Of a stretch of 64,000 bases of DNA, positions 23,412 to 64,000 are shown piece by piece. Made by a program: the position numbers and the translations under genes. Origin of the DNA: Ailurus styani. Taxonomy: Eukaryota > Chordata > Mammalia > Carnivora > Ailuridae. The stretch covers positions 1 through 64,000 of the forward strand of contig LNAC01001938.1 of the NCBI GenBank assembly GCA_002007465.1, written 5' to 3'. Positions within the stretch are counted from its first letter, which is position 1; each line of letters starts with the position of its first letter. The notes beneath the pieces were generated by a model, which ran no database searches, was not told where the DNA came from, and saw only the letters and a list, made by a program, of their open reading frames with translations.

Positions 23412-24343
23412 GAGCTGGAAGACGCCTTGTACATACACTCCTTTCTCAGACTGATGTGTGGGGCCGTTTTCTTGTGCATTCACACACACTTTTGAAAATG
23501 CTTCTATCTTCTGGAGAGTAGAGGCTGGTTGAAAAATGGTTTCTCCACAGTCTTGTTCCATACAGGTAAGTGGATGGCACCTAGGCTTCCACACACACAA
23601 ACTGATAACATCTCTGTTGCCCAGAAATGAAATGTGAGTTGAAACAGACATGACATCTAAGCAGATTTGGTTCTCCCTTAACAATGAAGTATAGGCTACA
23701 TTCCTTGTGCTTTCACACACATATTTGAAAATTCTCCTGTCCTCAGGAATGATGATGTTGGTTAGAGCATGGTTTCTCTACAGTGTTGTTTCTTAGAGGG
23801 AAGTAGACGGCACTCTCTTAGCTTCCACGCATATATTGGAAAAGGGGTTCGTCTTCATGATACAAGATGTTGGACAAAGGTTCCATGCTACACAAACTGC
23901 TTTCTCAGAGTCACGTATGTGTGCCTCTCCTTGTGCTTTTACACCCAATGTGGAAAGTACACCCATCTTCCTGAAAGACATGAGTGGAAGGAGGCATTCT
24001 CTATAGTGTTGCTTCTCAGAGTCATAGACATGGCACTTTCCTTATGATATCAGACACACTTTTAAAATGCCTCCATTTTTATGACAGAATATGGGAGTTT
24101 AAAGATGGTCTTCATGAACAAATATGTGACTTGAAAGAGGCTATCGACATTGACATTGATATGGCACTTGCCGTCAGCTTTAGTACATACATATGAAACT
24201 GCTTCCCTTCATGAGAAGGCCTTTTGGTCAAAGAGGTTCTTGTCTAGAGTGTGCACTCTTTTTGACAATTACAGGACCCTTTCTCTGTGCTTTCACACAC
24301 AGATTTTGATGATTGCTTCTATCTATATAAATGATGTTAGTGA
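23412..24343 (+). repeat. sat110 satellite, first block
   Basis: First appearance of the second satellite: monomers of about 108-113 bp each containing a core like TTTCTCTACAGTGTTGTTTC, a GTAAGTATATGGCACT-like middle and a CACACTTTTGAAAATGCTTC-like end. Comparison with later blocks shows fixed-order monomer types. It is interrupted by a SINE at 24359. Confidence 0.8.
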
Positions 24344-24566
24344 AAAAAGTGTCTTCTCGTGCACCTGGGTGGCTCAGTGGGTTAAAGCCTCTGCCTTCGG
24401 CTCAGGTCATGATCTCAGGGTCCTGGGATCAAGGCCCGCATTGGGCTCCCTGCTCAGCCAGGAGCCTGCTTCCTCCTCTCTCTCTGCCTGCCTCTCTGCC
24501 TACTTGTGATCTCTCTCTCTCTCTGTCAAGTAAATAAATAAAATATTTTTTAAAAAGTGTCTTCTC
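24344..24566 (+). mobile_element. Carnivore SINE (SINEC) in satellite, perfect 15-bp target duplication
   Basis: The body at 24359-24551 begins GCACCTGGGTGGCTCAGTGG, has CTTCGGCTCAGGTCATGATC (RNA polymerase III internal promoter region of the tRNA-like head), then TGCCTACTTGTGATCTCTCT, a CT run and an AAATAAATAAAAT tail. Direct repeats AAAAAGTGTCTTCTC occupy 24344-24358 and 24552-24566. It is the least diverged SINE in the window and the best lineage marker. Confidence 0.97.
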
Positions 24567-24802
24567 ATAGGTGTTATTTTTTAGAGTTAAGGAGTAGCCA
24601 CTTTCCTTATGTTTCCTTATGTTTCCACAGCTCTTTCCTCATGCTTCCCTGGAGAGTTTTGAAAATGCTTCCTCATCCTGAAAGACATGAATTCAAGGAC
24701 GGTTTCTACAGAGTATTCTTTCTGAGCCTTAAGGACGTGGCAGATGGCCTGCATCAGCAAACAGCTCCTTCAACACACTTCTGTTTTGATTTGTCATATC
24801 CC
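24567..24802 (+). repeat. sat110 satellite, continuation after the SINE
   Basis: The interrupted monomer resumes directly after the target duplication and is followed by about two further monomers. The block ends near 24802 within a TCATATCCCTTGTGCCTTGA stretch, where sat310 resumes. Confidence 0.75.
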
Positions 24803-25310
24803 TTGTGCCTTGAGTCCTAGGGTTCAGGTCCTTTTGGCCCCATAGCTCTCTTTATTGTTAAGATGATTACTCCTGAGCTCTTTGTTGCTTCTTTGATGGT
24901 GGTGTATAGATATGTTACAATGGCTGAATTGAGGACTGGCATTAGGGTGTGTCTCTGGCTTTTGTCATGGCCTTAGGTTTAGCTGAAGTCTATGGTAAAG
25001 GTTCAATTTTTTCTTCCATCCTGCTCTCAGACTGCATTCTGGGGGTTGCAATATGGCACGGTCTCCTTTTGTATTCCTGACTTAGTAGTCTGCCCTCTGT
25101 CTGGTGAGCTAATCCCATTGCACCCTGAGGCACAGTATTCAGGGACCTTCAATTCCAAAGCCAGGGCTAGGTTTAGGGTTCCCTAGGGTCCTGGAGATGG
25201 TATGAGGCTATCCAATGGCAGTGTTGAGACTCCCCTAAGGCCTCAGTTGGGGGCAAGCTTTAGGGTGAAGCTCTCAAGTATTTTTGGATCACAGGTGCTA
25301 GCCCCATTGT
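24803..25310 (+). repeat. sat310 island between sat110 blocks
   Basis: About 0.5 kb of sat310 in forward orientation, recognised by TGAGTCCTAGGGTTCAGG, CCAAAGCCAGGGCTAGGTTT, GGTCCTGGAGATGGTATGAG and TTTAGGGTGAAGCTCTC. It lies between two sat110 blocks, so the two satellites are interleaved rather than meeting at a single border. Confidence 0.8.
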
Positions 25311-28280
25311 TATATTTTCTTGGCATTTCACTTTTCTTTATGTTTCAGACACACTTTCTAATGTAGTTCTATCTTCTGGCGAGAACGTATAGTTGAAAGA
25401 TGGTTGCTCTACATTGCTGCTGTGAGTTGAAAGGTGCAATATAAACAGACTTGTTTCTCCCTCAGTGCAAAGTCTCTGACACATTCCTCAAGATTTAATA
25501 CACCCTTTTGATGAAGGCCTCTGTCTTCACGGTTGTGGCCATTCCTTGAAACAGGGTTTCTCTACACTGTTGCTTCTTAGTGTTAAGTTGATGGTTCACA
25601 CTCTGGCTTCCACACCTACATTGGAAAACTCTTGTCTTCATAATGCAAGATGTGGGTTGAAAGTTCCATACTACAAGAACTAATTTCTCAGAGTCAAGTA
25701 TACATCACTTATGTGCTGTCACACACAGTTTGGAAATCACCCCTGTATCCTGAAAGAGGGTAGTGGAAGAATGTCCCTCCACAGGGTTGATTGCCAGTTA
25801 TACACATGGCACTTTCCTAATGTTATCACACACATTTGGGAAAGTGTTTCTATCTTCAGGAAAGATGTTTTGAAACCATTCTTTCTGGCAGTGAGGTTTC
25901 TAAGAGATAAGTTATGGCACTCTGCTTAGGCCTCCACACATACACTTGAAATTATTTCTATCTTCACGGAAGAAGATTCAAGTGGGAAGATGGATTAAAC
26001 ACAGGCTTATTTCTCCCAGGTATGTACATAGCAATCTCTGTATACTTTCACACACACATTTTTACATGTTCCCACCTTCAGGAGAGACAATGTTAGTTGA
26101 AATTCAGTTGCTCTCCCATGTTGATTCATAGAGTTACATTGATGGCACTTTCCTTCTTCAAAATATACACCTGATCACTCTTCTGTCTTTGTGAAACCAC
26201 AAAATCGTTCAAGTTAGATTTGCTACACACATGGACCTCCTATTTAAGGATAGTCATTCAAATTAGCATTCTACACACACTTTGTCATCTGAGTTAAGTA
26301 TATATCACTTTCCTTATGCTTCATACATACTTTTGAACATACTTCTATATTCTGGCGCACACTTACAGATTTCTCTACAGTGTTGTTTTGAATTCAAAGG
26401 TGCATTCTAAACAGATTTGTTTCTCTCTCCGAGTGAAGTCTAGGACATGTTCCTCTAGCTTTCATACACACTTTTCATAAATGCCTTTTTCGTCTTTAAA
26501 ACAGTGTTTTTCTACTGTGTTGTTTCTTAGTTTTAGGTGGATGGCATACACCTTGACTTCCACACCTCCATTTGAAAACACCTCTGTCTTCACGATGCAA
26601 GATGGGAGTTAAAATTTCCACACTTCACGAACTGGTTTCTCAGAGACCAGTATATGTCACATACCCTGTGTTGTCACACACAGTTTGGAAAAAACTCTCA
26701 TCTTCCTGAAGTGTGAAAGTGGAAGGATGGTTTCTTGACAGGATTTCTTTTCAGGGTTATGTATACAGCACTTTCCTGATGCTATCACACTCACTTTGGA
26801 ACGTGCTTCCATCTTCAGGAAAGATGGTCATTGAAACCATTGTTTTTTGCCTTGAGGTTTCTTAGACATAAGTATACAACATTCTGCTTAGACTTGCACA
26901 TGTACACTTGAAATCCTTTCTATCTTCATAACACAAGAGTTTAGTGGGAATGTGCATTCCACACAGACTTCGTTCTCCCACATAATACATGGAACTTTAT
27001 GTGTACTTTCACACACCATTGAACATGATTCCATCTTCAGGAGAATTGATGTTGGCTGAAATTTGGTTTCTCTTCCGTGTTGTTTGACAGTTACATTCAT
27101 TGCACATTCCTTACACTTCCATACCTACACCAAAAACACTTCTCTTTGTAAAATCAGTTATTCATTCAAATTTGCATTCTATAAACACTTGTTCATTGAA
27201 ACTGTTGTTTTCGACCCTGAGGTTTCTTAGAGGTAAGTATATGGCACTCTGCTTAGACTTCCACATGTACACTTGAAATCTTTCTATCTTCGTGACACAA
27301 GATTTTGGTAGGAATACGCATTCCACACTGACTTCATTCTCCCAGATAAATACAGGGCACTCTGTGTTTTTTTGAAAATGATTCCATCTTCAGGAGAGAC
27401 GATGTTGGTTGAAATTTTGTTTCTCTACTGTGTTACAGTCATGGCACTTCCCTTACACATCCATACATACACTTGAAACCACTTCTATCTTTGTGAAACC
27501 AGATACTTTTTGGAATTTGCCTTTAATACAGACTTGGTCCTCCAAGTAAAGATCATTTCACTTTTCCATATGGTTCATACACACTTTTGAATGTACTTCT
27601 ATCTCCTGGCAAGAATATGTTAGTTAATGGTAGAGAGATGGCATTGTTTTGAGTTGAAAGGTGCATTCTGAACAGAAGTGTTTCTCCCTCAGAGTAAAGT
27701 CTCTGACACGTTCCTCAAGCTTACATACACACTTTTGATAAAGGCTTTTGTCCTCACCGTTGTTGTTCTTTGAAATACTGTTTTTCGATAGTTTTGTTTC
27801 TTAGCGTTAAGTGGATGGCTCATACTCTGGCTTCCACACCTTCATTGGAAAACACCTCTGTCTTCATGATGCAAGATGTGAGTTGAAATCTCCATACTAC
27901 ATGAACTTGTTTCTCACAGTCGAGTATATGTCACTTACCTTGCCCTGTCACAAACACTGTTCAGAAAACACTTCAGCTTTCCTGAAATGTGGTAGTGGAA
28001 GGGTAGTTTGTAGATGGTTTGATTCTCAGAGTTAGGTATATGGCACTTTACTGATGCTATCACCAATTTGGAAAGTGCTTCCATCTGCAGGAAAGAAGAT
28101 GTTCATTGAAACCATTTTTTTGACACTGAGTTTTCTTGAGTTAAGTATACCTCACTTGGCTATGCATCCACACATACATTTGAAAGCATTTTTATCTTTA
28201 TGACAAAAGATTTTCACGGGAAGCTGCTTTCCACACAGAGTTCTTTCCCCCAGGTCAGTATGTGGCACTCTCTGTATACA
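25311..28280 (+). repeat. sat110 satellite, main forward block
   Basis: Shows the higher-order repeat most clearly. Eight monomer types follow each other: A (ends in TTCATTGAAACC), B (AAGTATATGGCACTCTGCTT), C (TTCTCCCAGGTATGTACATA), D (CATAGAGTTACATTGATGGC), E (TTATGCTTCATACACACTTT), F (AACAGACTTGTTTCTCCCTC), G (TTAAGTGGATGGC, CTTCATGATGCAAGATG), H (ATATGTCACTTACCTTG). Equivalent A/B borders near 25870 and 26831 are 961 bp apart, and near 27196 and 28106 are 910 bp apart. The 365 bp between the pairs is a partial unit, showing unequal exchange. Confidence 0.85.
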
Positions 28281-28489
28281 TTATTTTATTTTTTCAGTGA
28301 TCCAAGATTCATTGTTTATGTACCACACCCAGGGCTCCATGCAATACGTGCCCAACTTAATACCCACCACCAGGCTCACCTATCCCCTTCCCCCCCCTTC
28401 ATAACCCTTAGTTTGTTTCTCAGAGTCCACAGTCTTTCATGGTTAATCTCCCTTTCTGATTTACCCCACTTCACCTTTCCTTCCCTTCC

Positions 28490-35647: not shown

Positions 35648-35949
35648 CCAGACTTCAAGTTAAAGGTAGTCCCCAAGCACAGGGCACTTTTGTATTGGGG
35701 TATTCCTTTCCAGTGTGTCGCTCCTGGTGGCTCCCTCCCCCCTTCTGTTTATCCTCAGATATCAGTCCCAGCACTCCCACCTCGCTTTACCTCACTGGTG
35801 ATGATCTGCATCTGTAGAGATCCAGAAGTATATAATCTTACTTCTTGGGCTGATTTCATGGGACCTTAGAGTGTTCTGGTAGTTATTTAGCTCACTTCAG
35901 GGGACCCAGTGAAACAGGGACTCCCACTATTCCACCATCTTGCCCCTCT

Positions 35950-37136
35950 TCTGCTTCATATACAATTTGAAAGTAATTCTATCTTCTGGCAAGAATATAC
36001 TAGTTGAAACATGGTTCTCTGTAGCACTCTTTCATTGTGTAAAGTATATCACCCTTAGTATGGGCCCCTACACATATATTTGAAATCACTTCTGAGCTCA
36101 GGAAACAAGTTTTCAGGGGAAAGACACATACTACATTTCCTTGTTTCCCCCAGGTAATTACATATCACTGTGTACTTTCACAGAAACCTTTAAGCATGAT
36201 TCCACCTTCAGGAGAGATGATGTTAGCAGAATTTCGGTATCTCTCCAGTGTTGTTTCATAGAGTTACATTCAGAGCCCTTTACTTACACTTCTATACATA
36301 CAGCTAAAATCCCATCTATCTATATGAAACCAGATATTCATTCAAATTAGCCTTCTATACACACGTGGTCCTCCAAGTTAAGAATATTTCACTTTTCCTT
36401 ATGCTTCATATACTTTTTGAACATACCTCTATCTTCTGACAAGAATGTGTTTGCTGAAGGACGGTTTTGCTACACTGTTCAATATTGAGAGGTGTATTCT
36501 AAACAGACATGTTTCTCCCTCAGAGTGAAGTGTCTGGTGAGTCGCTAAAGCTTTCATATACACTTTAGAAATGCTTCATTATGCAGGGTTGTTGCTGTTC
36601 TTTGATACAAGGTTTCTCTACAGTTTTGCTTCATAGTGTCAAGAGAAAGGCACACACCTTGACTTCCACACCAACATCAGAAAACAGCTCTGTCTTCTTA
36701 ATGTAGGATAAAGGTAAAAAAGTTCCATACTACACGAATTGGTTTCTCAGAATCAAGTATATGTCCCATACCCTGTGCTGTCACACCGTTTGGAAAACAA
36801 GACCATCGCCTTGAAATGAAGTATTCGAAGGTGGTTTTTTGAAGGGGTTGCTTCTCAGTTATGTAACATGGCACATTCCTGATGTTATCTCACACATTTT
36901 GGAAAGTGCTTCCATTTTCAGGAAAGACGTTCACTGAAACTGTTTTTTTCCTGACAGGGGGGTTTCTTAAAGGTAAGTGTAGGGCACTCTTGTTGGCCGC
37001 CACACATACACTCGAAATCGTTACCTTCATGGAACAAGATTTTAGTGGGAAGTCGCATTCCACACAGACTTCTTTCTTCCATGTATGTACGTGGCACTCT
37101 CTGTATACTTTCACACACTCTTTTGAAAATGATTAC
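35950..37136 (+). repeat. sat110 satellite, forward block between two L1 copies
   Basis: Starts in an E-type monomer and includes the variant B'-C'-D'-E' run (AAATCACTTCTGAGCTCAGG, GGTAATTACATATCACTGTG) followed by F, G, H, A, B and C types. It ends within C at TTTTGAAAATGATT, next to the 5' start of a plus-strand L1. Confidence 0.82.
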
Positions 37137-38630
37137 AAGGAGGAGGAGCAAAATGGAAGAGGAGTAGGTGACCAATTATCATCAGATCCCAGGATTTCAC
37201 CCAGCTAGTTATGAAACAGTTCCAAACACCCACAAATTCAACAGGACATTGAAGAGAATAGCAGCAATTCTAGGAACAAAAAAATCGACCACTGTCCATA
37301 GGTAAGACGTGTGGAGAAGTGAATCTGAAGTAACAGGAAGTTAGTCCCCGGGGAGAGGGATGGGCTCCCGGCAAGTGAGAGAGCAAAGGAGCACAAAATC
37401 AGAACTTTTAGAAGTCTGCTTCACTGAGGGATGTCACCCCAGAGGCTAAGTGGGGGGTGAAGCCCTCACAGGGACAGTGTGATCTCAGGACCCAGAGGGA
37501 CACAAAAAGGCCACTGGTGTCTGAGAGTGACAGAGCTCCCAGGTATTGGAGGGGGGAAGCCAACTGGAGGATGGGGCCAAGCAGTGGACTCTCAACTCAG
37601 TGTTAACTTAAGCCATGATACAAAGCACAGTTGGGCCACTGCTTTTTGAGCAGGGACCACACAAGTGGTGGATCTGGAGAGACCCCCTCCTTCCTCCTCT
37701 GGGAGGAGTGGCATGGGAGCGTGCTGCAGGAATCTGCTGGGTTTGGAAACTCCAAACAGGGCTGTGCCAGAGATAGAAATGCTCGATCATAGGCTGGGTG
37801 AGCTCCGAGTGCAACTGGAGACCAGGGAGATGGGACAGACTGACTGTTTTTCTCTGAGGATGCACTGAGGAGTGAGATCCCGAGCACTACACTCCTCCAG
37901 GTCAGAGACTGGGAGGCCGCCATGTTCGTTCCCATCCTCCAATGCTGTACAGAAAGTGTTCAGGAATAAAAAGCTCCAGAGAGCGAATGTGAGCTGATTA
38001 CTTAGCCTGACCCCTGGCAAGGGCAGCTCAATTCCACCTCGGGCAAAGACAATTGAGCATCACAGCCACAGGCCCCTCCTACAGAAGATTTGCAAGTATA
38101 TCCAGCCAATACCAAGTTCACCAATCACTGAGAATTGTGGAACTCCAGAGCTAGAGGAAAGCAACATATCCACGACCCTTTATTCTTTCATAGTTAAATA
38201 CTTTGAATTTTTTTCTTACTCTTCTCTATTAAAATTTTTCTTCTTTCCTACATTAACGTTTTTTATACTATTTTATCTGATCAATACATTTTAAAAATCT
38301 TTTTAAATTTTCATTCTTATAGTAATACTTTATACATGCATTGTATTTAACATTACTTTTTTACACATATAAGGTCTGTTAAATTCACCAGTCTAATATA
38401 GATATACATATACATATACATATAGATGTAGATATAGACATATAGATATGGAAGTAGAGATAGAGAAAGAAATAGATATATAGATACAGGTTTTTTTCTT
38501 TTCTTTTCCTTTATTTGCCCTCTTCCTTCTCCCCCCAGTTTTGGGTCTCTTCTGATTTGGTTACTGTATATTTTTCTAGGGTTCTTGCCACACTTTAGTA
38601 TTTTGTTCTCTCATCCATCTATTCTTATCT
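37137..38630 (+). promoter_or_regulatory. L1 5' untranslated region
   Basis: GC-richer first kilobase (37.3-38.1 kb) followed by AT-rich sequence and the GATA/TACATA simple repeat. It corresponds, inverted, to 56.5-58.18 kb in the other L1 with a 5' end. It would carry the L1 internal promoter. Frames such as 37603-37935 (minus) are antisense and unconvincing as genes. Confidence 0.6.
38396..38489. repeat. Simple repeat in L1 5' untranslated region
   Basis: TATAGATA, TACATA and AGAGATAG units. The equivalent position of the L1 at 52.2-58.2 kb holds the complementary type of repeat (56668-56731), so this tract belongs to the L1 subfamily and is not a local event. Confidence 0.8.
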
Positions 38631-38639
38631 GCATAAAAT

Positions 38640-41752: not shown

Positions 41753-42100
41753 AAAGTTCATTTCTCTCCACACTTGGTCCTCCAAGTTAAAAATATTTCA
41801 CAATTTCTTATGCTTCATATACACTTTTGTAAGTAGTTTTATTCTCTGGCAAACATGTCATTGCTGAAGTACGGTTTCTCTACTGTGTTTTATGTTGAAA
41901 GTGGCACTTTTAACTTTCTTGTTTCTCCCTCAGTGGGAAGTGCCAGGTGTGTTGCTCAAGCTTTCATAGAGACACTGGAAAATGCTTCAGTCTTCAGGGT
42001 TGATGCTGTTCATTAAACATGGTTTCTGTACAGTGTTGTTTTGTAGTGTAAAGTGGCTGACATGCACTCTGATTGCCACAACTAGATCAGGAAAAGCTCA
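41753..42100 (+). repeat. sat110 satellite, short forward block
   Basis: Forward E, F and G monomers (CACACTTGGTCCTCCAAGTT, TGTTTCTCCCTCAGTGGGAA, TTGCTCAAGCTTTCATAGAG) end near 42100, where orientation flips. The forward part ends mid-G monomer. Confidence 0.85.
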
Positions 42101-44610: not shown

Positions 44611-44883
44611 AAGGTGACATATTCTTTTTTTATTTTATTTTTATTCTTGGCCCAAGGGGTACAGGTCTGTGAACCATTAGGCATACATCTTTCACAGCAT
44701 TCACCAAAGCACAAACCCTCCCCAATGTCCATAGCCCATCCACCCTATCCCTACCCTCCCACCCCCCAGTAACCCTCAGTTTGTTTTGTGAGATTAGGAG
44801 TCTCTTATGGTTTGTCTCCTTCCCCATCCCATCTTGTTTCATTATTTTTCCCTCCCTACCCCCCTGACACCCCACCCTGCCCC

Positions 44884-47404
44884 TCAAGTTCCTCACATCA
44901 GAGATCATATGATAATTTTCTTTCTCTGATTGACTTATTTCGCTCAGCATAATACACTCCAGTTCCATCCATGTCGTTGCAAACGGCAAGATTTCGTTTC
45001 TTTTGATAGCTGCATAGTATTCCATTGTATATATATANNNNNNNNNNNNNNNNNNNNNNNNNNNNNNNNNNNNNNNNNNNNNNNNNNNNNNNNNNNNNNN
45101 NNNNNNNNNNNNNNNNNNNNNNNNNNNNNNNNNNNNNNNNNNNNNNNNNNNNNNNNNNNNNNNNNNNNNNNNNNNNNNNNNNNNNNNNNNNNNNNNNNNN
45201 NNNNNNNNNNNNNNNNNNNNNNNNNNNNNNNNNNNNNNNNNNNNNNNNNNNNNNNNNNNNNNNNNNNNNNNNNNNNNNNNNNCACTACCTTTGTGTCTTT
45301 AGGATAAATACCCAGTAGTGCGATTGCTGGGTCGTAGGGTAGCTCCATTTTCAACTTTTTGAGGAATCTCCATACTGTTTTCCAGAGTGGCTGCACCAGT
45401 TTGCATTCCCACCAACAGTGTAGGAGGGTTCCCCTTTCTCCGCAACCTCGCCAACATCTGTCATTTCCTGACTTGTTGATTTTAGCCATTCTGAGTGGTG
45501 TGAGGTGGTATCTAGCTGTGGTTTTGATTTGTATTTCTCTGATGCCGAGTGATGTTGAGCACTTTCTCATGTGTCTGTTGGCCATTTGGATGTCTTCTTG
45601 GGAGAAATGTCTGTTCAGGTCTTCTGCCCATTTCTTGACTGGGTTACTTGTTTTATGGGTGTTGAGTTTGAGAAGCTCTTTATAGATTTTGGATACTAGC
45701 CCTTTATCTGATATGTCATTTGCAAATATCTTCTCCCATTCTGTCAGTTGTCTTTTGGTTTTGTTGACTGTTTCCTTTGCTGTGCAAAAGCTTTTAATCT
45801 TGATGAAGTCCCAATAGTTCATTTTTGCCCTTGCTTCCCTTGCCTTTGGTGAGGTTCCTAGGAAGAAGTTGCTGCGGTTGAGGTCGAAGAGGTTGCCACC
45901 TGTGTTCTCCTCAAGGATTTTGATGGATTCCTTTTTCACATTGAGGTCTTTGATCCATTTTGAGTCTATTTTTGTGTGTGGTGTCAGGAAATGATCCAGT
46001 TTCATTTTTCTGCATAGTGGCTGTCCAGTTTACCAACACCATTTGTTGAAAAGACTGTCTTTTTCCCACTAGACATTCTTTCCTGCTTTGTCAAAGATTA
46101 GTTGACCATAGAGTTGAGGGTCCATTTTTGGGTTCTCTATTCTGTTCCACTGGTCTATGTGTCTGTTTTTGTGCCAGTACCATACTGTCTTGATGATGAC
46201 GGCTTTGTAATAGAGCTTGAAATCTGGAATTGTGATGCCGCCAACTTTGCTTTTTTTTTTCAACATTCCTTTGGCTATTCGGGGTCTTTTCTGGTTCCAT
46301 ATAAATTTTAGGATTATTTGTTCCATTTCTTTGAAATAAATTGCTGGTATTTTGATGGGGATTGCATTAAATGTGTAGATTGTTCTAGGTAACATAGACA
46401 TTTTCACATCATTTGTTCTTCCAGTCGATAAGCATGGAATGTTTTTCCACTTCTGTGTGTCTTCCTCAATTTCTTTCATGAGTACTTTATAGTTTTCTGA
46501 ATACAGATTCTTTGCCTCTTTGGTTAGGTTTATTCCTAGGTATCTTATGGTTTTGGGTGCAATTGTAAATGGGATTGACTCTTTAATTTCTCTTTCTTCT
46601 GTTTTGTTGTTGGTATATAGAAATGCAACTGATTTCTGTGCATTGATTTTATATCCTGACACTTGACTGAATTCCTGTATGAGTGCTAGCAGTTTTGGAG
46701 TGGAGTCCTTTGGGTTTTCCACATAAAGTATCATATCATCTGCAAAGAGTGAGAGTTTGACCTCTTCCTTGCCGATTTGGATGCCTTTTATTTCTTTTTG
46801 TTGTCTGATTGCTGAGGCTAGGACTTCTAGTACTATGTTGAATAGCAGTGGTGATAGTGGACAGCCTTGCCGTGTTCCTGACTTTAGGGNACTTCTAGTA
46901 CTATGTTGAATAACAGTGGTGATAGTGGACAGCCTTGCCGTGTTCCCGACTTTAGGGGAAAAGCTCTCAGTTTTTCTCCATTGAGAATGATATTCGCTGT
47001 GGGTTTTTCGTAGATGGCTTTGATGATATTGAGGTATGTACCCTCTATGCCTACACTATGAAGAGTTTTGATTAAGAAAGGGTGCTGTACTTTGTCAAAT
47101 GCTTTTTCAGCATCTATTGAGAGGAACATATGGTTCTTGTTCTTTTATTAATGTCTTGTATCACATTGATTGATTTGCGAATGTTAAACCAACCTTGCAT
47201 CCCAGGAATAAATCCCACTTGGTCGTGGTGAAAAATCCTTTTAATGTGCTGCTGGATCCTATTGGCTAGTATTTTGTTGAGGATTTTTGCTTCCGTGTTC
47301 ATCAAATGTATTGGTCTGTAATTCTTCTTGATGGGGTCTTTGCCTGGTTTGGGGATCAAAGTAATGCTGGCCTCATAAAAGAAGTTTGGAAGTTTTCCTT
47401 CCAA
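44884..47404 (-). pseudogene. Partial L1 ORF2 (RT and C-terminus)
   Basis: Minus-strand ORF2p from the RT start (47114-47404, [17 protein letters not shown]) through catalytic segments (46884-47129, [20 protein letters not shown]) and thumb (46069-46734) to the C-terminal cysteine region ([14 protein letters not shown] in 45283-46005). The LFADDMIL coding is at about 46.73-46.76 kb. The endonuclease is absent because of truncation. Several frame breaks coincide with the assembly joins, so the true gene may be less damaged than it appears. Confidence 0.9.
45038..45282. other. Assembly gap (245 N)
   Basis: A run of N falls inside L1 ORF2. By comparison with 9060-9170 the missing part should be about 110 bp of ORF2 C-terminal coding, so the gap size may be nominal or the gap may hold extra sequence. 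Confidence 0.95.
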
Positions 47405-47457
47405 TTCTATTTTTTGGAACAGTTTCAGGAGAATAGGTATTAATAAGGTGACATATT

Positions 47458-50420
47458 ATTAACTCGCAGAAACAGGTGTGTAATAACTTGCATGCCCACC
47501 TGGCCTCACAGATATAGATGGGCGTTCATGTGGATGCATAGAAGCATAATCAAAGGGCTATGATTGGAACTCTATGAAATTAGACCAGAGAGAAACTGAA
47601 ATCCAGCTAACATTGTCTCTCCTGAAAGTGGAATCATCCCCAAGGTGGTGTGTGAAAGTACACAGTGCCATGTACTTACCCTGGGGGGAATGAGTTGGTG
47701 TAGTAGACTCTTTCCACTAAAACCCTGTTTCCTGAGCTTAGAGGGGGTATCACATGTACATGTATTGAGAAACTTGTGCGAAGGGTGATAGACTTTATGC
47801 TAAGGGAGAACGCTGTGAGGAAACCACCTTTCAACTCATATGCTCTTGCCACTACATCAAGCACTTTCAAGAGTGTATATGAAGCATAAGAAAAGGTGAA
47901 CTATTCTTAATTAGGTGGACCAAGTGTGGAGAGAAACGAACTGGAACGAGTATGTGGTTTCACAAAGACAGCAGCATTTTCACGTGTATCGCTGGAGACT
48001 GAGGAACGTGGCATTGTTGTATCTCTATGAACCATGGGAAAGCAACTGACTTTCAATGAACAAAGACTCTCCTGAAGTGGGACTTTTGTTCAAAGGTGTG
48101 TGTGAAAGTATACGGAGAGTGCCATGTAATTACATGGAAAATAAGAAGTCAGTGTGGAATGCGACTTCCACACAAACTCTTGTTGCATGAAGACAGAAAC
48201 AATTTCGAGTCTAGGTGTGGAAGCCCAGCGGAATGCCCCACATGTACCCCAAAGAAACGCCCCTGTCAGAACAAAATGGTTTCAACGAACGTCTTTCCTG
48301 AAGATGGAAGCACGTTCCAAAGTGTGTGCCATAGCATCAGAAATGTGCCGCATCCATAACTCTGAGCAGCAACCCCGTCAGGAAAACACTTTCAACCGCC
48401 ACATTTCTGAATGATGGGCGTCATTGCCAAACAGTGTGTGAAAGCCCTGGGCAAACAATATATAAATGACTCTGAGAAACCAATTTGCAAAGTGTGCAAC
48501 TTTCGACCCTCCTCCTGCTTCATTCATGAAGACAGAGCTGTTTTCCGATGTAAGCGTGAAAGTCAGAGTCTGGGCCTCCCACTCACTTAATGCTAAGAAG
48601 CAACACGGTAGAGAGACCCTGTTACAGAGAACAGCAATAACCCTGAAGACTGACGCATTGTCTATAGTGTGTTTGAAAGCTTGAGTAAGGTGGCAGACCC
48701 TTCACTCCGAGGGAGAAACAAAGTTGTTTAGCATGCACCTTTCAACATACAACACTGTAGAGGAATCGTCCTTCTACAAACACGTTCTTGCCAGAAGACA
48801 GTAGAACGTTCAAAAGTGTCTATGAAGCATAAGGAATGGGAATTATTCTTAACTCAGAGGACCAGGTGTGTGTAGAAGGCATATATGAATTACTATTTGG
48901 CATCCTGAAGAGAGATGGGATTTCAGGTGTATATATGGAAGCATGAAGGCAGTGTTTTGTAGATAACTGTGTGAAACAACATGGTAGAGAAACCGAATTG
49001 TAGCTAACCTAGTCGCTCCTGAAGGTGGAATCATTTTCAGTGCTTTTTGTAAAAGTATACAGAGTGCCATGTACTTACATGGGAGAAAGAAGGCTGTGTG
49101 GAATGCATCGTCTCTCTAACACCTTTTCTCCATAAGATAGAAACCATTTCAAGTCCACGTGTGGAGAGCATGCAGAGTGCCATATACTTACCCAGAGAAA
49201 CCTTGCTGTTGGATAAAAGTTTCACTGAATGACCTTTCTGGAGATGGAAGCGTGTTCCAAAGTGTGTGCCATAATATCAGGAAGGTTCCACACACTTAAC
49301 TTTGAGAAGCAACGCTGTTAAGAAACCACCTTCAATTACCACATTTCAGGAAGACGGGTGTCATTTCCCAATGCTGTGTGACAACACAGGGCATGAGACA
49401 TATACTTGACTCTGAGAAAACCAGTTCTTATAGTATGGAACAGTCAACCCTCATCTCGCATCATGAAGACAGAGCTGTTCTCCAATCTAGGTGTGGAAGT
49501 CAGGGTGTGTGTCATTTCCTTAACCCTACGAAGCAACCCTGTTTCAAAGAACAGGATCAACCTTGAAGACAGGAACTATTTCTCAAGTGTGTAGTAATGT
49601 TTCTCAAAGCTCCAAAAAATTCATTCCAAGGGAGAAGCTTTTCTGTTTAGAATACATCCTTCGGGAAACAAGTTCTTGCCAGAAGATATTAGTACATTTA
49701 AAAGTGTCTATGAAGCAGATGTAAAGTGGAGTATTCTAAACTTTGAGTTCCATATGTGTATAGAAGGCCCCTACGAATACCTATCTGGTTTCACGTAGAT
49801 ACATTGGATTATAGGTGTATGTATAGAAGCATAAGGAAAGGGATCTGAGTGGTATTCTTCGTACCTACAATGGAGGGAAACCTAAATTCAGCAAACGTCA
49901 TCTTTCCTGAACTTAGAATGATGCTCATAGGTGTGTGTGAAAGTAGAGAGTGCCCTGTACTTTCCTGGCATTAATAAGTCAGTACAATATGCTTCTTTCC
50001 ATCAAATCGCTCAGAAGCGTTTTCACATAAACATGAAGAACAGGTGAAGGGTGACATATTTTACCCTAAGAGTGCAATAGAGAAAACGTGGTTCAATTCA
50101 TGTTCTTACCAGAAGATAGAAGAACTTTCAAAAGTGTACATGAAGCATAAGGAAAGCTGTAAAATTCTAAACTCTGAGTACCACGTGTGGAGACAAATGA
50201 ACTTGAACCAGAATGTGGTTTCACGGCAATAGCAGCATTTTCACGTGTATGAATGGAGGATTAAGGAAAGCACCATCATTGTATCTCTGTGAAACAAAAC
50301 TGGAAAGCGAGAGACTTTCATTTAACACTGACTCTTGTGAAGGTGGAATCATGTTCAAAGATGTGAGTGAAAGTGTATGGAGTGCCATGTACTTACATGT
50401 TAGAAAGATTTCATGGTGGA
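47458..50420 (-). repeat. sat110 satellite, reverse block 2
   Basis: Continues exactly where the L1 interrupted a monomer. It contains the longer variant run B'-C'-D'-E' in reverse (47.46-47.9 kb, ATTGTCTCTCCTGAAAGTGG, CTGAGCTTAGAGGGGGTATC), then standard monomers. Short frames such as 48096-48359 arise in this orientation. Confidence 0.85.
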
Positions 50421-51127
50421 AAGAGACTTCCCAGTAAGCGAGGATGAGGAGAAAGGGGAACCCATACTGTTGGTGGGAATGCAAGTTGGTGCAGCCACTC
50501 TGGAAAACAGTATGAAGGTTGCTCAAAAAGTTGGAAATAGAGCTACCCTACGACCCAGCAATCACACTACTGGGTATTTACCCTAAAGATACAAAGGTAG
50601 TGATCCTCAGGGGCACATGCACCCGAATGTTTAGAGCAGCAATGTCCACAATAGCCAAACTATGGAGAAAGCCTAGATGTCCATCAACAGATGAATGGAT
50701 AAAGAAGTTGTGGTATATATACACAATGGAATGCTATGCAGCTTTCAAAAGAAATGAAATCTTGCCTTTTTTAACAATGTGGATGGAACTAGAGGGTATT
50801 ATGCTGAGCGAAATAAGTCAGTCAGAGAAAGACAATAATCATATGATCTCTCTGATAGGAGGAACTTGAGGGGCAAGGTGGGGGAGTCATGGGGGCTAGG
50901 GACGGAAAAATAATGAAACAAGATGGGATGGGGAAGGAGACAAACCATAAGAGACTCCTAATATCGCAAAACAAACTGAAGCTTACTGGGGGCTCGGAGG
51001 GTAGGGATAGGGTGGATGAGTTATGAACATTGGGTAGAGTTTGTGCTTTGGTGAATGCTGTGAAAGTTGTAAGCCTGATGATTCACAGACCTGTACCCTG
51101 GGGCAAATAAAAAAAAGAGACTTCCCA
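50421..51127 (+). mobile_element. Short L1 3' end, plus strand, 13-bp target duplication
   Basis: The body is about 50434-51114, the last 680 bp of an L1: ORF2 C-terminus from GGGGAACCCATACTGTTGGT, the stop after [20 protein letters not shown], the 3' untranslated region, and the tail GGGCAAATAAAAAAAAG. Direct repeats AAGAGACTTCCCA lie at 50421-50433 and 51115-51127. It is inserted opposite to the local satellite orientation. Confidence 0.95.
50519..50869 (+). pseudogene. L1 ORF2 C-terminal fragment
   Basis: A 116-codon open stretch of ORF2p C-terminus with [20 protein letters not shown] and [20 protein letters not shown]. It is open because the insertion is young, not because it is expressed. 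The RT and endonuclease are missing. Confidence 0.9.
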
Positions 51128-52176
51128 CTAAAATCTTGTTCTATGAAGATACAAATGATTTAAACTCTACATGTGGAGGCCAAGCAGAGGGCTGTCCACT
51201 TACCTCAAAGAAACCTCCCTGACAGAAAAAAATGGTTTCAATGAATATCTTTCCTGAAAATGGAAGTGTGTTCCAAATGTGTGCCATAGCATCAGAAAAG
51301 TACCACGTACATAAATTGGAGAAGCAACTCTGTAAAAACCTTCTACTACCACATTTCAGGAAGATGGGCGTGTTTTCAAAACGGTGAGTGACAGCACATG
51401 GAGACATATACTTGACTCTGAGAAGCCAATTTTTGTAGTATGCAACTTTCTATCCTCATCCTGCATCATGACAATAGTGCTGTTTCCCGATATATGTGGA
51501 AGTCAGAGTATGGGGCATCCACTTAACGCCTAGAAGCAAAAATGTAGAGAAAACCCTGTTTCAAAGAGCACCAACAAGCTGGTGTGAAGCATTGTCTAAA
51601 CAATGCATGAAAGCTTGAGTAAAGTATCCGACGGAGAATCAAGTCTGTTTTACATGCCCCTTTCAACAGTCAATTCTGTAAGAAACAATCTGTGAACAAA
51701 TAAATTCTTCCCAAAAGATAGAAGTAGGTTTTAAAGTATCTTAGAACCATAAGGCAAAGTGAAGTCTTCCGAACTCTAAGGACCACTTGTGTATTGAAGG
51801 CAAATTTGAATGAGTATCTGCAATTGTGAAGAGAGATGGGATTTGCTGTATGTATGGAAGTGTATGGACAGTGTTATGAAGGTAACTTTGTGAAACAACA
51901 GGGGAGAGAAGCCGAATTCAGGTAGATACTCTTGCTCCAGAAGGTGGAATTATATTTGGTGCATGGTGTAAAAGTACACAGAGAGTGCCATGTTCTTACT
52001 TGGAAGAAAGAAGGCTGAGTGGAATGCCTCTTTTCACTAATACCTTTTTTCCTGGAGATAGAAATGGCTTCAAATGTGTAGCGAGGCCAAAGCAGAATAA
52101 CATATTCTTTCCTCACAAAAACGACCCTGTTGGAAAACAGAATTCTGAGCAAATCTTTCTTGAATGTGTGAATATG
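51128..52176 (-). repeat. sat110 satellite, reverse block 3
   Basis: Reverse-oriented monomers B through A. Subtype features (CCATCTCTCTTCACAATTGC in complement, GGAAAAAAGGTATTAGTGAA in complement) match the forward block at 59.8-61 kb rather than the block at 25-28 kb. It ends at GTGTGAATATGT, next to an L1 lacking its poly-A end. Confidence 0.85.
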
Positions 52177-52249
52177 TTCCCAATCCCATTTTCTTTCTTT
52201 TTTCACTGCTGACCTACCATGATCTGGCTCTACTGCTCAAGTTCCTCAT

Positions 52250-55500: not shown

Positions 55501-55559
55501 TCTTACTTTCTGGTCTGTTTCTTTTAGGCTCTCTTTGCTAAGGGGCCCCTTTCGATATT

Positions 55560-58183: not shown

Positions 58184-59503
58184 AACACTTCTGTTTAGAA
58201 TGTACCTTTCAACATACAGCACTGAAGAGAAACCGTTCTTCAACACGCACGTTTCTTGCCGCAGGATAGAAGTATGTTCAAAAGTGTGGAAGCATTAGGA
58301 AAAGTGAAATATTCTTAACGCAGAGGAACAAGCGTGTATAGAAGGCTAATTTGATTGAGTATCTGGTTTCACGAAGATAGATGGGATTTCAGGTGTATGT
58401 ATAGAAGCTTAAGGAAAGGGCCATGAATGTAACTCTACAAAATAACACCAGAGAAAACCCGAAATTCAGCTAACCCTGTCTCTCTGAAGGTAGAATCATG
58501 TACACAGAGTGCCATGTATTGCCCCTGGAGTTAAAAGTCAGTGTAGTATGCGTCTTTCCAGTAAAAAGTTGTTTCCTGAGCACAGAAACATTTTCAAATG
58601 TACAGGTTGGGTCCCAAAGGGTCATATGTGTAACACTAAGAAACAGTGCTGTACAGAAATCGACTTTCAACTCATTTGTTCTTGCCAGAATATAGAAGTA
58701 CTTTCCAAAGTATGTATGAAGCATAAGGAAAGGTGAAATATTCTTAACTCAGAGGACCAGCCAACTGTGTAGAGAAACTAACTTGAATGAATATGTGTTT
58801 GTCACGAAGATAGAAGCGTTTTCATGTGTATGTTTGGACGAAAGGGAAAGTGCAATCATTGTAACTCTATGAAACAACACGGGAGAGCAACCTAATTTCA
58901 GCTAACATTGATTCACTTATAGGTGGAAGCATGTTCAAAGGTGAGCATGAAAGTATACAGAGAGTGCAGTGTATGTACCTGGAAAAAGAAGGCTGCATGG
59001 AATGCATCTTGCCACTCTAATATTTTGTCACGTAGAAATGATTGCAATTATACGTGAGGAGGATGAAACAGCGACCTCTACTTACCTCTAAGAAACCTCT
59101 CTGACTGATAAAACGGTTCAAATTAACATATTTCCTGAAGATGGAAGCACTTTCCAAAGTGTATATGATAACATCAGGAAAGTGCCATGTACTTAACTCT
59201 GAGAAGCAGCCCTGCAGAGATATCAATCTTCCACTACCACATTCTGGGAAGACTAGTGTTTTCCAAACTGTGTGACAGCAAATTGTAGTGAAATATACTT
59301 GACTCTGAGAAGCCCGTGGCTATAGAATGGAACATTCAACCCACATCCTGCTTTGTGAAGATAGATGTGTTTTCCAGTGTGGATTTGGAAGCCAGATGTT
59401 GTGTCATCCACTTAACGCTAAGAAGCAACATTGTAAAGAAAACCATTTTCAAAGAACAGCATCAACCCAGAAGACAGAAGTATTTTCAAAAGTCTGTGTG
59501 AAA
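58184..59503 (-). repeat. sat110 satellite, reverse block 4
   Basis: Starts in an F-type monomer in reverse (ACACTTCTGTTTAGAATGTA) and continues through the reverse series with a B'-E' variant (58.4-58.7 kb) to a further F/G monomer (AAGAACAGCATCAACCCAGA). It ends where an L1 fragment begins near 59504. Confidence 0.82.
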
Positions 59504-59567
59504 CAATAGCCAAACTGTGGAAAGAACCTAGATGTCCATCAACAGATGAATGGATAAAGAAGATGTG

Positions 59568-59604
<37 letters not shown>

Positions 59605-59800
59605 GGAATACTATGCAGCTAACAAAAGAAACGCAATATTGCCGTTTGCAATGACTTGAATGGAACTAGAGGGTATTATGCTGAGCGAAATAAGTCAATC
59701 AGAGAAAGACAATTATCTCTCTGATCTGAGGAACTTTAGAAGTATGGCTGGGGTCGTGGGTGGTCGGGAGGGAAAAAAAGAATCAAGATGTGATCGGGAA
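59504..59800 (+). mobile_element. Internal L1 fragment at an orientation flip, plus strand
   Basis: About 295 bp: AATAGCCAAACTGTGGAAAG through ORF2 C-terminus and part of the 3' untranslated region, ending at GATCGGGAAC without poly-A. A TG microsatellite (about 59570-59600) replaces the TATA stretch. Satellite is reverse to its left and forward to its right. Its right junction (59796-59810) is identical over 15 bp to the complement of 52167-52181, where the minus-strand L1 meets satellite. No target duplication was found. Confidence 0.9.
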
Positions 59801-62800
59801 CATATTCACATATTAATGAAAGATTTACATTGAAACCGTTTTTTTGACAGGGAAGTCCCCGTTAATTAAATGTATGGTACTCTGCTTTGGCCTCCCCACA
59901 GACTTGGAGTCCTTTCTCTCTTCAGGAAAAAAGGGATAAGTGAGAAGACGCAGTCCACACAGACTTCTTTCTCCCACATAAGAACACGGCACTCTCTGTG
60001 TACTTTCACACCCAGCAGTACGATTCTATTTTCAGTAACACCCAGGTTAGCTGGAATTCGGTTTCTCTACCATGTTATTTCACAGAGTTACTTTCACAGC
60101 ATTGTCCTTATACTTTAGTACATACAGCAGAAATCTCATCTCTCTTCATAAAAGCAAATACCCGTTGAAATTTGCCTTCTATACATAAGTGGTCCTATGA
60201 GTAAAAAGACTTCACTTTGCCTTAAGCTTCAAAGACAACTTGAAAGTAGTATCTTCTGACAAGAACATATTTGTTGAAGGACTGTCTTGCTCGAGTGTTA
60301 ACTGTTGAGAGGGACATGATAAACAAAATAGACTTCTTTCTCCCTCGGAGTGTTTTCTGATGCTTTACTCAAGCCTTCATACACACTTTACACAATTCTT
60401 CAGTCTTCAGGGTTCCTTGAGACAGGGTTTCTCTGCATTGTTGCTTCTAAGCATTAGGTGGGTGGCCCACTCCCTGACTTCCACACCTATATCGGAAAAG
60501 AGCTCTGTCTTCATGATGCAAGATGAGGGTCAAAATTTACATATTACAACAATTGGTTTCTCACACTCAAGTACTGTATGTTCCATCCCATGTGCTGTCA
60601 TTCTCTGTTTGGAAAACACGCCCATCTTCCTGAAATGTGGTATTCACAAGATGTTCTGACAGTGTTGCTTTTCAGAGTTATATATGTGCCACTTTCCTGA
60701 TGCTATGGAACACGCTTCCATCTTCCAGAAAGACGTTCATTGAAAGCGTTTTTCCCAACAGGGAAGTTTCTTTGGGGCAAGTGTAGGGCAATCTGCTTTG
60801 GCCTCCACACGGAGACTTCAAATGGTTTCTATCTTCTGGTGATATGGTATTAGTAAGAAGATGCATACCACACATTCTTCTTTCTCCCACCCAAGAATAT
60901 GGCACTGGGCACTTTGACACGAAACACTGTATATGATTCCACCATCAGGAGAGACTAGGATAGCTGGAATTTGGTTTCCATACCATGTTGTTTCACACAG
61001 TTACCTTAAAAGCACTGTCCTCATCCTTCCATACCTTCAACTGAAATCCTCTCTTCATGAAATCAGGTATTCATTCATATTTGCCTCCTGCACGCAAGTG
61101 GTCTTATGAGTTAAAAAGACTTCACTTTGGTTTATGCTTCAAGGACACTTTTGAACGTACTTCTATCTTATGACAAGAACATATTTGTTGAAGGACTGTT
61201 TCGCTACGTGGTGACTATTGTAAGGGGCATGTAAAACAAAACAGAATTGTATTTTTCGGAGTGAACTGACACTTTACTCAAGCTTTCATACACACTTTCA
61301 ACAATGCTTCAGTCTTCAGTGTTATTGCTGTTTCTTGAAACAGGGTTTGACTACATTGTTGCTTCTAAGTTTTAAGTGGATGGCCCACACTCTGACTTCC
61401 ATACCTACATAGGGAAACAGCTCTATCGTCGTGATGCAGGATGATGGTGGAGAATTGCGAACTATGCCAAATGGTTTTTCAGAGTCCAGTAGCATATATC
61501 CCATCAGATGTGCTGTCATTCACCGTTTGGAAAACATGCCTGTCTTCCTGAAATGTGGTAGTCGCAGGGTGTTCTGATGGAGTTGCTTCTCAGAGTTATG
61601 TATGTGGCACTATTCTGATTCTATGGCACACACTTTGGAACGTGCTTCCATCTTCAGGAAAAACGTTCGTTGAAACCGTTTTGTTCTGACAGGGAGTTTT
61701 CCTTGGGGTAAGTGTCAGGCACTCTGCTGGGCCTCCACACCTAGACTTGAAATTGTTTCTATCTTCATGGAACAAGAGTTGAGTGGAAGGTCGCATTCCA
61801 CACTGACTTCTTATTTCTCTGTAATTACATGGCACTCTGCAAACTTTCACACACATCTTTGAACAAGAATCCCCCTTCATGAGAGTCAATGTTCAATGAA
61901 AGTCGGTTGCTGTCCTGTGGTTCATAGGGGTACGATGATGGCACGTTCCTTAATCTTCAGTCATACAACGTGAAAATGCTGCTATCTTTGTGAAATCAGA
62001 TACTCATTCCAGTTCTTTTCTCTCCACACTTGGTCCTCCTATTTAAGAATACTTTGCCTTTCCCTAGGCTGCATATTCACTTTTGAAAGTACTTGATCTA
62101 TTGGCAAGAATGTATGAGTTGAAAGGCAGTTTTGTTATAGCGTTGTCCTTAGCATAAAATCTATCATCCTTCTCATGGTCTCTTTCTACATGTACATGTG
62201 ATACCCGCTCTAAGCTCAGGAAACAGGGTTTTGGTGGAAAGAGGCCTACAACACCAACTTGTTCCCCTCAGGGTAAGTACATGGCACTGTGTACTTTCAC
62301 TCACCACCTCGAGGATCACTCCACCGTCAGGAGAGATGATGTTAGCTTATTTCAGATTCTCTCTAGTCTTGTTTCATAGAGTTCTACTCTTTCCTTACGG
62401 TTCTATGCATCCACCTGAAATGCCATCCATCTTCGTGAGACCTGGCAGTCATGCAAATTATTACGCACCGGGGCCCAAGAGTTTAGAATATTTCACAAAT
62501 CCTAATGCTACACAGAGTTTTGATTGAACTATCTTCTGGAAATACCTGTGTGCTGACAATGGTTTCTCTACAGTATTGTATGTTGAACATTGCATTCTGA
62601 ACAGAAGTGTTTCTCTCTCAGAGAGAACAGTCTGGTGCGTTGCTGAAGCAGTCATACGGACTTTAGAAAACGCCTCTGTCTTCAGCGTCGTTGGTGCACT
62701 TTCGAACAGGGTTTCTCCACAGTGTTGCCTTTTAACGTTAAAGAGGATGGCACACACCCTGACTTCCACACCTACATCGGAAAACAGCTGTTTTCATGAT

Positions 62801-64000
62801 GCGAGATCAGGGTTGAAGGTTCCTTACTATGAGAACTGGTTTTCTCAGTGTCAAGTATATGTCCAAAGCCATGTGTTGTCATGTACCAGTGGGAAATGAC
62901 ACCCGTCTTCCAGAAATGTGGTAGTCCAATGTGGTTTCTTGATGGCATTGATTTTCAGAGTTAGACACGTGGAATCTTCTATATACCATGGCACACACTT
63001 TGGAACACACTTCCATCCCCAGGAAGGACGTTCAGTGAAACTGTTTTATCGGACAAGGAGATTTCTTGGCGTAAGTGTAAGGCACTCTGCATGCTCTCCA
63101 CACGTGGACATGGAATCATTTCTATCTTCTGGAGACCAGGTGTTAGTGAGAAGATGCATTCCACACAGCCTTCTTTCTCCCATGTAAAAACATGGCACTC
63201 TCTGTTTACTTTCCCACAAGCACTGCATATGAGCGAGTAGGTTAGCTTGAATTTGGTGGTGTTACTGTGTGGTTTCCACTACCTAATGGCAAAGTCCTTA
63301 TCCTTCTATATATACAGCAGAGATCCCATCTCTCTTCATCAACGCAGATACTCATTGAAATTTGCCTTCTATACGAAAGTGTTCCTATGAGTTTAGAAGG
63401 CTTCACTTTGCCTTTATGCTTCAAAGACACTTTTGAACGTAGTATCTTCTGACAAGAACATATTTGTCGAAGAACTGTCTTGCTACAGTGTTGACTGGTG
63501 AAAAGGGTATGATAAAACAGATTTGTTTCTCCCTCAGAGTGAAGTGTCTGACGCTTTACTCAAGCTTTTATACACACATTCGAAAATGCTTCAGTTTTCA
63601 GGGTTACTGCTTTTCCTTGAAATAGTGATTCACTACATTGTGGCTTCTAAGCATTAAGTGGATGGTTGATACTCTTACTTCCATACCTAAATCAGGAAAC
63701 AGCTCTATCGTCATAATGCAGGATGAGCGCTGAAATTTGCATACTACACTAATTAGTTTCTCACAGTCAAGTAGTATATGCCCCATTATATGTGCTTTCA
63801 CTCTCCTCCTGGACAAAAGCCTGTCTTTCTTGAAAAGTGGAATCGCAAGCTGTTCAGTCAGCGTTGCTTCTCAGAGTTAGGTAATTGGTACTTTTCTGAT
63901 GCTATAGCACAAAATTTGGAAACATCTTCCATCTCCAAGAAAGACGTTCATTGAAACCATTTTTTCCAACAGGGAAGTTTCTTTGGGGCAAGTGTAGGGC
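59801..64000 (+). repeat. sat110 satellite, terminal forward block
   Basis: Forward monomers run to the window end, so the array continues beyond it. A/B borders near 59830, 60740, 61670, 63035 and 63951 give spacings of about 910, 930, 1365 and 916 bp. The 1365-bp unit carries the extra four-monomer run B'-C'-D'-E' (about 62.1-62.55 kb). Minus-strand frames such as 62461-62769 and 61596-61889 arise across monomers. Confidence 0.87.

What the first reader, a model, noticed from the sequence alone, without database searches (positions are those of the whole stretch)
23412..64000. Satellite of ~110-bp monomers organised in an eight-type higher-order repeat of ~0.93 kb
Seen directly: eight distinguishable monomer types (A-H) recur in the same order, with spacings of about 961 and 910 bp in the 25-28 kb block and 910, 930 and 916 bp in the 60-64 kb block. 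Copies differ noticeably, so it is an old or slowly homogenised array. Higher-order structure is typical of centromeric and pericentromeric satellites. I do not recognise this monomer as a published family.
Basis: partly seen in the sequence, partly recalled or inferred. Interest (0 to 1): 0.75.

Follow-up and report, generated by a model that had tools for sequence, protein, structure and literature searches.

The report
Old two-level satellite array, relic heterochromatin
A stretch of carnivore DNA is built from an old tandem repeat whose roughly 110-letter units recur in a fixed order of eight, with a shortened four-unit form; the same repeat sits at many places in the genome, has long drifted apart, and looks like a relic of old heterochromatin rather than a gene.

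Summary
The core observation holds. From 23.4 kb to the contig end lies a tandem repeat of ~111-bp monomers. Clustering blind to order gives eight types in a fixed order (925-bp unit), above chance (lag 8 z 5.5, lag 20 z 7.6; 1000 permutations).

Corrections: only ~17.5 of 40.6 kb is satellite, broken by L1/SINE; 42.1-59.5 kb is inverted; unit spacing alternates between 0.91-0.98 and 1.25-1.37 kb, because a 4-mer (A/E-hybrid + F-G-H) is often added, as unequal crossing-over would leave.

In this genome it lies on at least 16 contigs, in locus-specific forms (8)n, (8-4)n, (8-4-4-4)n; mean identity 66-78% within locus groups, 60-68% between. So it is an old, multi-locus higher-order satellite that is no longer homogenised, comparable in style to divergent alpha satellite but not of that family.

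A second, unrelated satellite (~312-bp monomers, 937-bp trimer, TTAGGG-rich) abuts it at 14.3-23.4 kb. Pericentromeric location is likely but unproven; whether Dfam/Repbase already lists it could not be tested.

The parts
23405..24349 (+). S110 satellite, edge block (unit pieces 23405-23633 and 23633-24340); the most diverged unit, next to S310
   Evidence: best match among 82 units only 0.665; groups with C2004:6829-7693, which also lies next to an S310 fragment (support 0.773)
24344..24566 (+). SINE inserted in S110, 15-17 bp target-site duplication
   Evidence: copies at 24344 and 24552; the name Can-SINE is recalled
24540..24770 (+). S110 remnant after the SINE
24792..25311 (+). S310 fragment between two S110 blocks
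   Evidence: 340 bits
25346..28282 (+). S110 block: 8-mer 25346-26253, near-full 8-mer 26322-27193, short 4-mer-like piece 27191-27564, partial 8-mer 27576-28282
35942..37142 (+). S110 block: 4-mer then partial 8-mer
41754..42099 (+). S110 remnant up to the inversion point
42069..44603 (-). S110 block, inverted
44611..47457 (.). L1 insertion with target-site duplication; unit phase continues across it (925 | L1 | 5)
   Evidence: AAGGTGACATATT at 44611 and 47445; L1 by similarity to the L1 at 8.6-12.5 kb
47442..50437 (-). S110 block, inverted: two 8-mers and 4-mers
50420..51131 (.). Short L1 piece with an 18-bp target-site duplication (one mismatch)
   Evidence: copies at 50420 and 51114; similar to 8659-9333
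51090..52183 (-). S110 block, inverted
58184..59503 (-). S110 block, inverted; ends at the inversion point, followed by a non-satellite piece 59504-59794 (looks like an L1 end)
59795..64000 (+). S110 block 4-8-8-4-8-8..., continuing to C1938:69130
14334..23412 (+). S310: second satellite, ~312-bp monomers in a 937-bp trimer unit, TTAGGG-rich; 19209-21151 inverted
   Evidence: lag 3 z 5.0, TTAGGG 32 against 6.3 expected, maximum 12 of 200 simulations

Best explanation
S110 is an old non-coding satellite family, most likely of pericentromeric heterochromatin, with two-level order. Steps: (1) ~111-bp monomers diverged into eight types and an 8-mer (A-H) became the amplified unit; type A carries ~34 bp twice (anatomy shown, history inferred). 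(2) A misaligned exchange between A and E gave a 4-mer, A/E-hybrid + F + G + H (anatomy shown in outline; mechanism and direction inferred). (3) Blocks spread to many loci and groups of loci came to differ in pattern: (8)n, (8-4)n, (8-4-4-4)n or mixed (patterns shown, spread inferred). (4) Homogenisation slowed or stopped, so copies drifted to mean identities of 60-78%, and L1s, a SINE and inversions broke the array (state shown). It is now probably passive: heterochromatin and a substrate for recombination, not a working centromere (inferred).
For: Order and chance controls. At least 16 contigs of the same 2.318-Gb assembly (lower bound, 40 of 212 and 40 of 107 candidates scored). Near-full 8-mers on 10 of 12 contigs read (9, C1299). 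Locus groups: mean within-group identity 0.66-0.78, between 0.60-0.68; nearest neighbour in the same contig 40 of 82, permuted mean 12.3, max 26. In a tree of the 82 units g1 (41 of 42), g2 (14 of 14), g3 (7 of 7) and g4 (8 of 9) each form a clade. Patterns per contig. Hybrid first monomer of the 4-mer. Three TE insertions with target-site duplications. In 9 of 12 contigs read S110 comes within 10 kb of a contig end.
Against: No chromatin, FISH or chromosome assignment; contig ends mark any hard sequence, and three of the nine contigs are under 60 kb (C1996, C2004, C2298). Groups are imperfect: g5 splits into two clades, g6 is not one clade, the g4 clade has support 0.39 and deep nodes 0.41-0.60; C1536 is 0.66-0.68 to other groups. 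A single origin of the 4-mer is weak: its mean identity is 0.594 to 4-mers of other groups, 0.588 to their 8-mers, but 0.623 to 8-mers of its own group. The hybrid test had no shuffled control; type A is longer and scores high by length, and B edges A in the first 28 bases of g5 and g6.
Confidence: 0.72

Rival explanations
1. S110 is the fossil of a former active centromere satellite: its locus groups correspond to suprachromosomal families, and the window is an outer layer beside a live centromere or a dead one.
For: Multi-type units, locus-specific variants, most diverged unit at the array edge (0.665), decay and TE insertion; a similar picture is described for old alpha satellite in human (passages of PMC9859433).
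Against: No CENP-B box in the window at up to one mismatch (1.8 expected by chance). No young, homogeneous part of the family was seen in the two genome searches, though such a part is the likeliest to be missing from an assembly.
Confidence: 0.33
2. S110 and S310 are subtelomeric or interstitial heterochromatin; the TTAGGG-like motifs of S310 come from chromosome ends or an old end fusion.
For: S310 has TTAGGG 32 times against 6.3 expected and abuts S110 in the window; S310 scraps also adjoin S110 on C2004 and C1727.
Against: TTAGGG occurs scattered inside 312-bp monomers, not as telomeric runs. The request for telomere runs in the genome did not complete.
Confidence: 0.2
3. The pattern is an assembly artefact (collapsed or mis-joined repeats).
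For: N at 9757, 10307, 45038-45282 and 46890; many of the contigs are small.
Against: Copies 60-78% identical do not arise from collapse; near-full 8-mers in the same order lie on 10 of 12 contigs read, one of 1.16 Mb; insertions have target-site duplications.
Confidence: 0.04

Closest known systems
Alpha satellite, divergent and old layers (primates)
   Same: Multi-type higher-order units, older decayed copies at array edges (passages of the review PMC9859433)
   Different: Monomer 171 bp (recalled; also in a listing), ~111 bp here; no CENP-B box in the window at up to one mismatch; no homogeneous core seen
CarSat1 / CarSat2 (dog, carnivore centromere satellites)
   Same: Carnivore tandem repeats, centromere-linked in dog (passages of PMC3422206)
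   Different: 738 and 1466 bp, no detectable internal repeat; both CarSat1 primers 0 matches with up to 3 mismatches in the window
Stone-marten macrosatellite S46L (PMC9957230, Table 2)
   Same: Lowest G+C of the eleven listed (44.9%); centromeric on several chromosomes and interstitial on Xq
Dog SAT1CF and Sat2CF-Sat6CF
   Same: Satellites linked to centromere gaps in dog (passages of PMC3422206)
   Different: Unit lengths not seen; no sequence comparison made (the SAT1CF primers were not tried)

Membership tests
Higher-order-repeat satellite (general kind) | Distinct monomer types recur in fixed order above chance | tested here: met
   (lag 8 z 5.5, lag 20 z 7.6, blind clusters)
Higher-order-repeat satellite (general kind) | Units much more alike than monomer types, through homogenisation | tested here: inconclusive
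   0.707 same type against 0.642 different type in the window; units within groups 0.66-0.78: real but weak, an old state
Higher-order-repeat satellite (general kind) | Multi-locus with locus-specific variants | tested here: met
Alpha satellite | ~171-bp monomer | tested here: not met
   111-bp model
Alpha satellite | CENP-B box in a subset of monomers (motif recalled) | tested here: not met
   0 in the 64-kb window with up to 1 mismatch, (old alpha layers may lack it too, recalled)
CarSat1 | Primer sites of the published amplicon | tested here: not met
   0 matches for 2 of 2 CarSat1 primers; window only
CarSat1 | 738-bp unit without internal repeats | tested here: not met
   925-bp unit made of eight related monomers
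Stone-marten S46L | Sequence identity with its consensus | not testable with these tools
   sequence not in the parts of the paper that I read; supplements could not be read
Any Dfam/Repbase satellite | Match to a named consensus | not testable with these tools
   no such library here; Rfam gave 0 matches in the window
Centromeric or pericentromeric satellite | Location at a primary constriction, or CENP-A / H3K9me3 chromatin | not testable with these tools
   only indirect: within 10 kb of a contig end in 9 of 12 contigs read

The most novel reading that the evidence does not exclude
S110 was a main centromere satellite of an early carnivore or older ancestor, with its own analogue of alpha-satellite suprachromosomal families; it was replaced, and its dead layers still record the unequal exchange (A x E) and the branching of higher-order forms. 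If so it is a non-primate record of centromere turnover reaching back tens of millions of years.
Probability: 0.3. Interest if true: 0.72.

Novelty: new member of a known kind. Interest (0 to 1): 0.48.

Why it matters
Higher-order satellites are best studied in young, homogeneous primate arrays (recalled). Here the order survives in copies with mean identities of 60-78%, and related forms (8-mer, 8-4, 8-4-4-4) sit at different loci of one genome, so the steps by which a higher-order repeat forms, spreads and dies can be read side by side. The divergence predicts that the same A-H order should be found in other carnivore families, which is directly testable on public assemblies.

Tried and rejected
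Coding origin: 10 of 32 ORFs of 110 aa or more were scanned against Pfam; one match, RVT_1 in 10303-11274 (L1). RNA family: 0 matches at Rfam's gathering scores. TRF lists no ~110-bp or ~0.9-kb array; its longest period was 500 and it needs copies more alike than these. S110 and S310 as one family: consensus against consensus gives only weak matches (best E 0.13). Relatives in other collections: two 20-base patterns in genome contigs and three patterns in viral contigs gave 0 matches; the pattern left out one base of the consensus by my slip, so its zero means little. A loose pattern gave 81 stretches in viral contigs; 0 of 81 were confirmed by the three models. No other carnivore could be searched: the tool states that the genome has no relatives in its collection. 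Free-end lag test: discarded.

Literature: eight searches, of which I saw listings with titles and starts of abstracts; none of these names a ~110-bp carnivore satellite with an eight-type order. Of papers I opened PMC9957230 (outline, results, discussion, figures and tables) and, as passages only, PMC3422206, PMC10887555, PMC7763226 and PMC9859433. PMC10887555 tells of an X-chromosome repeat (KDEXr) of bovids with relatives in Carnivora; I had no sequence to compare.

Age is rough. K2P without CpG-like sites: 0.397 between groups, 0.276 in g1, 0.188 in g2, 0.186 in g3; with all sites 0.530, 0.377, 0.271, 0.257. With a recalled neutral rate of 2.2e-9 per site and year this is about 90, 63, 43 and 42 million years (all sites 120, 86, 62, 58). 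Alignment error and conversion can move it either way.
Full report
What is there. The window is the first 64.0 kb of contig C1938 (69,308 bp) of a 2.318-Gb assembly in 2389 contigs. In 1-8.6 kb no satellite was found; it has a G+C-rich part (0.571 over 2-4 kb). 8.6-14.3 kb is mostly L1 (reverse transcriptase at 10303-11274; the stretch is similar to 28.5-35.6 kb and other interruptions). From 23405 to the contig end lies the satellite of the finding (S110), broken by L1s, one SINE and an inverted stretch.

S110 monomers. A profile started from 12 pieces of the 25.3-28.3 kb block and iterated (111 positions in the last round) gave 181 hits at E up to 10, dense from 23409 to 64000; the hits before 23.4 kb and inside the L1s all have E above 1. 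Orientation is + at 23.4-42.1 kb, - at 42.1-59.5 kb, + from 59.8 kb. Satellite in the window: 16,931 bp in 32 unit-model hits wholly inside it plus 579 bp of a hit crossing its end.

Higher order, against chance. 143 monomers cut only by the 111-bp profile (runs of at least 5; where a gap had room for one missed monomer a placeholder was set) were compared globally. Lags 8 (z 5.5) and 20 (z 7.6) were not reached in 1000 within-run permutations; lag 19 (z 3.0) equals the largest permuted value; no lag from 1 to 7 exceeds z 0.5; lag 16, two units, is only z 1.2, since 4-mers shift the register. Hierarchical clustering without order information labels the runs hmcfkgeb-hmcfkge... with an interposed 'haeb'. 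A 925-bp unit model finds the same eight types (A 147 bp, B-H 102-114 bp). Type A carries monomer positions 43-76 twice (hits 1-76 and 43-109), which explains its length.

The 4-mer. Matches to unit positions ~470-925 only lie between full units. Its first monomer is nearer to type A than to E (best type A in 16 of 20 in g1, 9 of 11 in g4, 6 of 6 in g3, 2 of 2 in g5, 1 of 2 in g6, 1 of 1 in g2; A gains from its length). In 28-base windows A leads in bases ~15-56 in g1, g3, g4, g5 and g6, and E leads at the end in g1, g3, g4 and g6 and ties in g5; B edges A in the first window of g5 and g6, other types lead between the two parts in g3 and g4, the single g2 case is unclear, and no shuffled control was run. 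An exchange between A and E of misaligned units would leave just this, removing four monomers' worth and giving A/E-F-G-H. A tree of 133 half-units puts 50 of the 64 4-mers in one clade (support 0.836, midpoint root), in favour of one old origin; against it, mean identity of 4-mers is 0.594 to 4-mers of other groups, 0.588 to 8-mers of other groups and 0.623 to 8-mers of their own group. I hold a single origin only tentatively.

Elsewhere in the genome. Two unit queries hit 16 contigs, 13 and three more (lower bounds). I read parts of 12 of the 16. Patterns: C1878 and the main run of C1727 are pure 8-mers; C2004 mostly alternates 8-4; C525 runs 8-4-4-4, period mostly about 2.5 kb; C1938 and C1996 are mixed. 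82 of 223 rows with at least 600 model columns, from 10 contigs, were compared; the 141 shorter rows were left out. Mean identities: {C1727, C1878} 0.77-0.78, C525 0.78, C2004 0.72, {C1938, C1996} 0.71, {C2298, C1293} 0.66-0.71, C1528 0.69; C1536 (two units) 0.75 within and 0.71-0.73 to C1938 and C1996. Between groups 0.60-0.65, with C1536 0.66-0.68. I named the groups after seeing this table. Nearest neighbour in the same contig: 40 of 82, permuted mean 12.3, maximum 26. Window 59601-62994 and C1996:186-3579 are 88% identical over 3.4 kb, a later duplication. The edge unit 23633-24340 clusters with C2004:6829-7693 (support 0.773), and both lie beside S310 sequence.

Insertions. Target-site duplications flank the SINE (24344/24552), the L1 of 44.6-47.4 kb (44611/47445) and the piece of 50.4-51.1 kb (50420/51114); at five other pairs of edges the best direct repeats were 9-10 bp (no chance control). 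The unit phase continues across the 44.6-47.4 kb L1 (925 | 5). So at least these three landed in an existing array.

S310. Monomer model 314 positions, 38 hits; trimer unit 937 bp. In 24 monomers lag 3 stands out (0.720 against 0.664 +- 0.011, z 5.0; not reached in 1000 permutations); blind clustering into three gives 'bba' repeats, so it separates two classes, not three. TTAGGG occurs 32 times against 6.3 expected, maximum 12 of 200. A genome search finds it on 10 contigs, all 18 candidates scored; C1851 has it in tandem too. S110 and S310 are not related by sequence. Their units are nearly equal in length (925 and 937 bp); I have no explanation and no evidence that this is more than coincidence.

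How it works, and what is inferred. Shown: order, outline of the hybrid 4-mer, locus-specific patterns, divergence, insertions, inverted orientation. Inferred: unequal exchange as the mechanism, spread between chromosomes, loss of homogenisation, heterochromatic and pericentromeric location. The nearest model is the divergent outer layers of primate alpha satellite (passages of PMC9859433). The likeness is in way of evolution; descent from it is not suggested by anything seen.

Known or not. PMC3422206 (passages) gives CarSat1 738 bp and CarSat2 1466 bp without detectable internal repeats. PMC9957230 (results, discussion, tables) lists eleven marten macrosatellites of 356-2949 bp; of these only S46L (1210 bp) is near in G+C. 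Neither source matches in length; sequences could not be compared apart from the CarSat1 primers. I therefore file it as a new member of a known kind, with the reservation that a named entry may exist in Dfam/Repbase.

Noticed in passing
window 14334-23412: Second, unrelated satellite (S310): ~312-bp monomers in a 937-bp trimer, five-fold excess of TTAGGG, inverted between 19209 and 21151; on at least 10 contigs.
   Followed up: partly
window 23405-23412, 24770-24792, 25311-25346; C2004:6592-6621; C1727:30552-30611: S110 and S310 adjoin at several places and on three contigs, at different unit positions.
   Followed up: partly
L106 and L105 (parts of C525:1-22000 of 1,161,539): A longer pattern, 8-4-4-4 with a period of mostly ~2.5 kb, at the very end of a 1.16-Mb contig.
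   Followed up: partly
window 59601-62994 and C1996:186-3579: 88% identical over 3.4 kb, above the 71% mean of these two contigs: a later duplication between loci.
   Followed up: no
window 8962-9068 and 44938-45032: The S310 monomer model gives two weak hits (28.9 and 19.9 bits) at like places of two related L1 copies; chance, or a shared stretch.
   Followed up: no
C1851:17444-18455 and C1482:29157-30162: S310 hits at the same relative spacing on two contigs: possibly a duplicated or doubly assembled locus.
   Followed up: no
window 46821-46957: 68-bp tandem duplication (95% match) with a single N at 46890, inside an L1: possibly an assembly scar.
   Followed up: no
window 2100-3400: G+C-rich stretch; three ORFs of 110 aa or more there had no Pfam match.
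   Followed up: partly
window 7635-7977: Long AT-rich degenerate microsatellite tract.
   Followed up: no
window 25346-28282 against 60231-64000: CpG observed/expected 0.21 against 0.38: the S110 block farther from S310 may be younger or less methylated.
   Followed up: no
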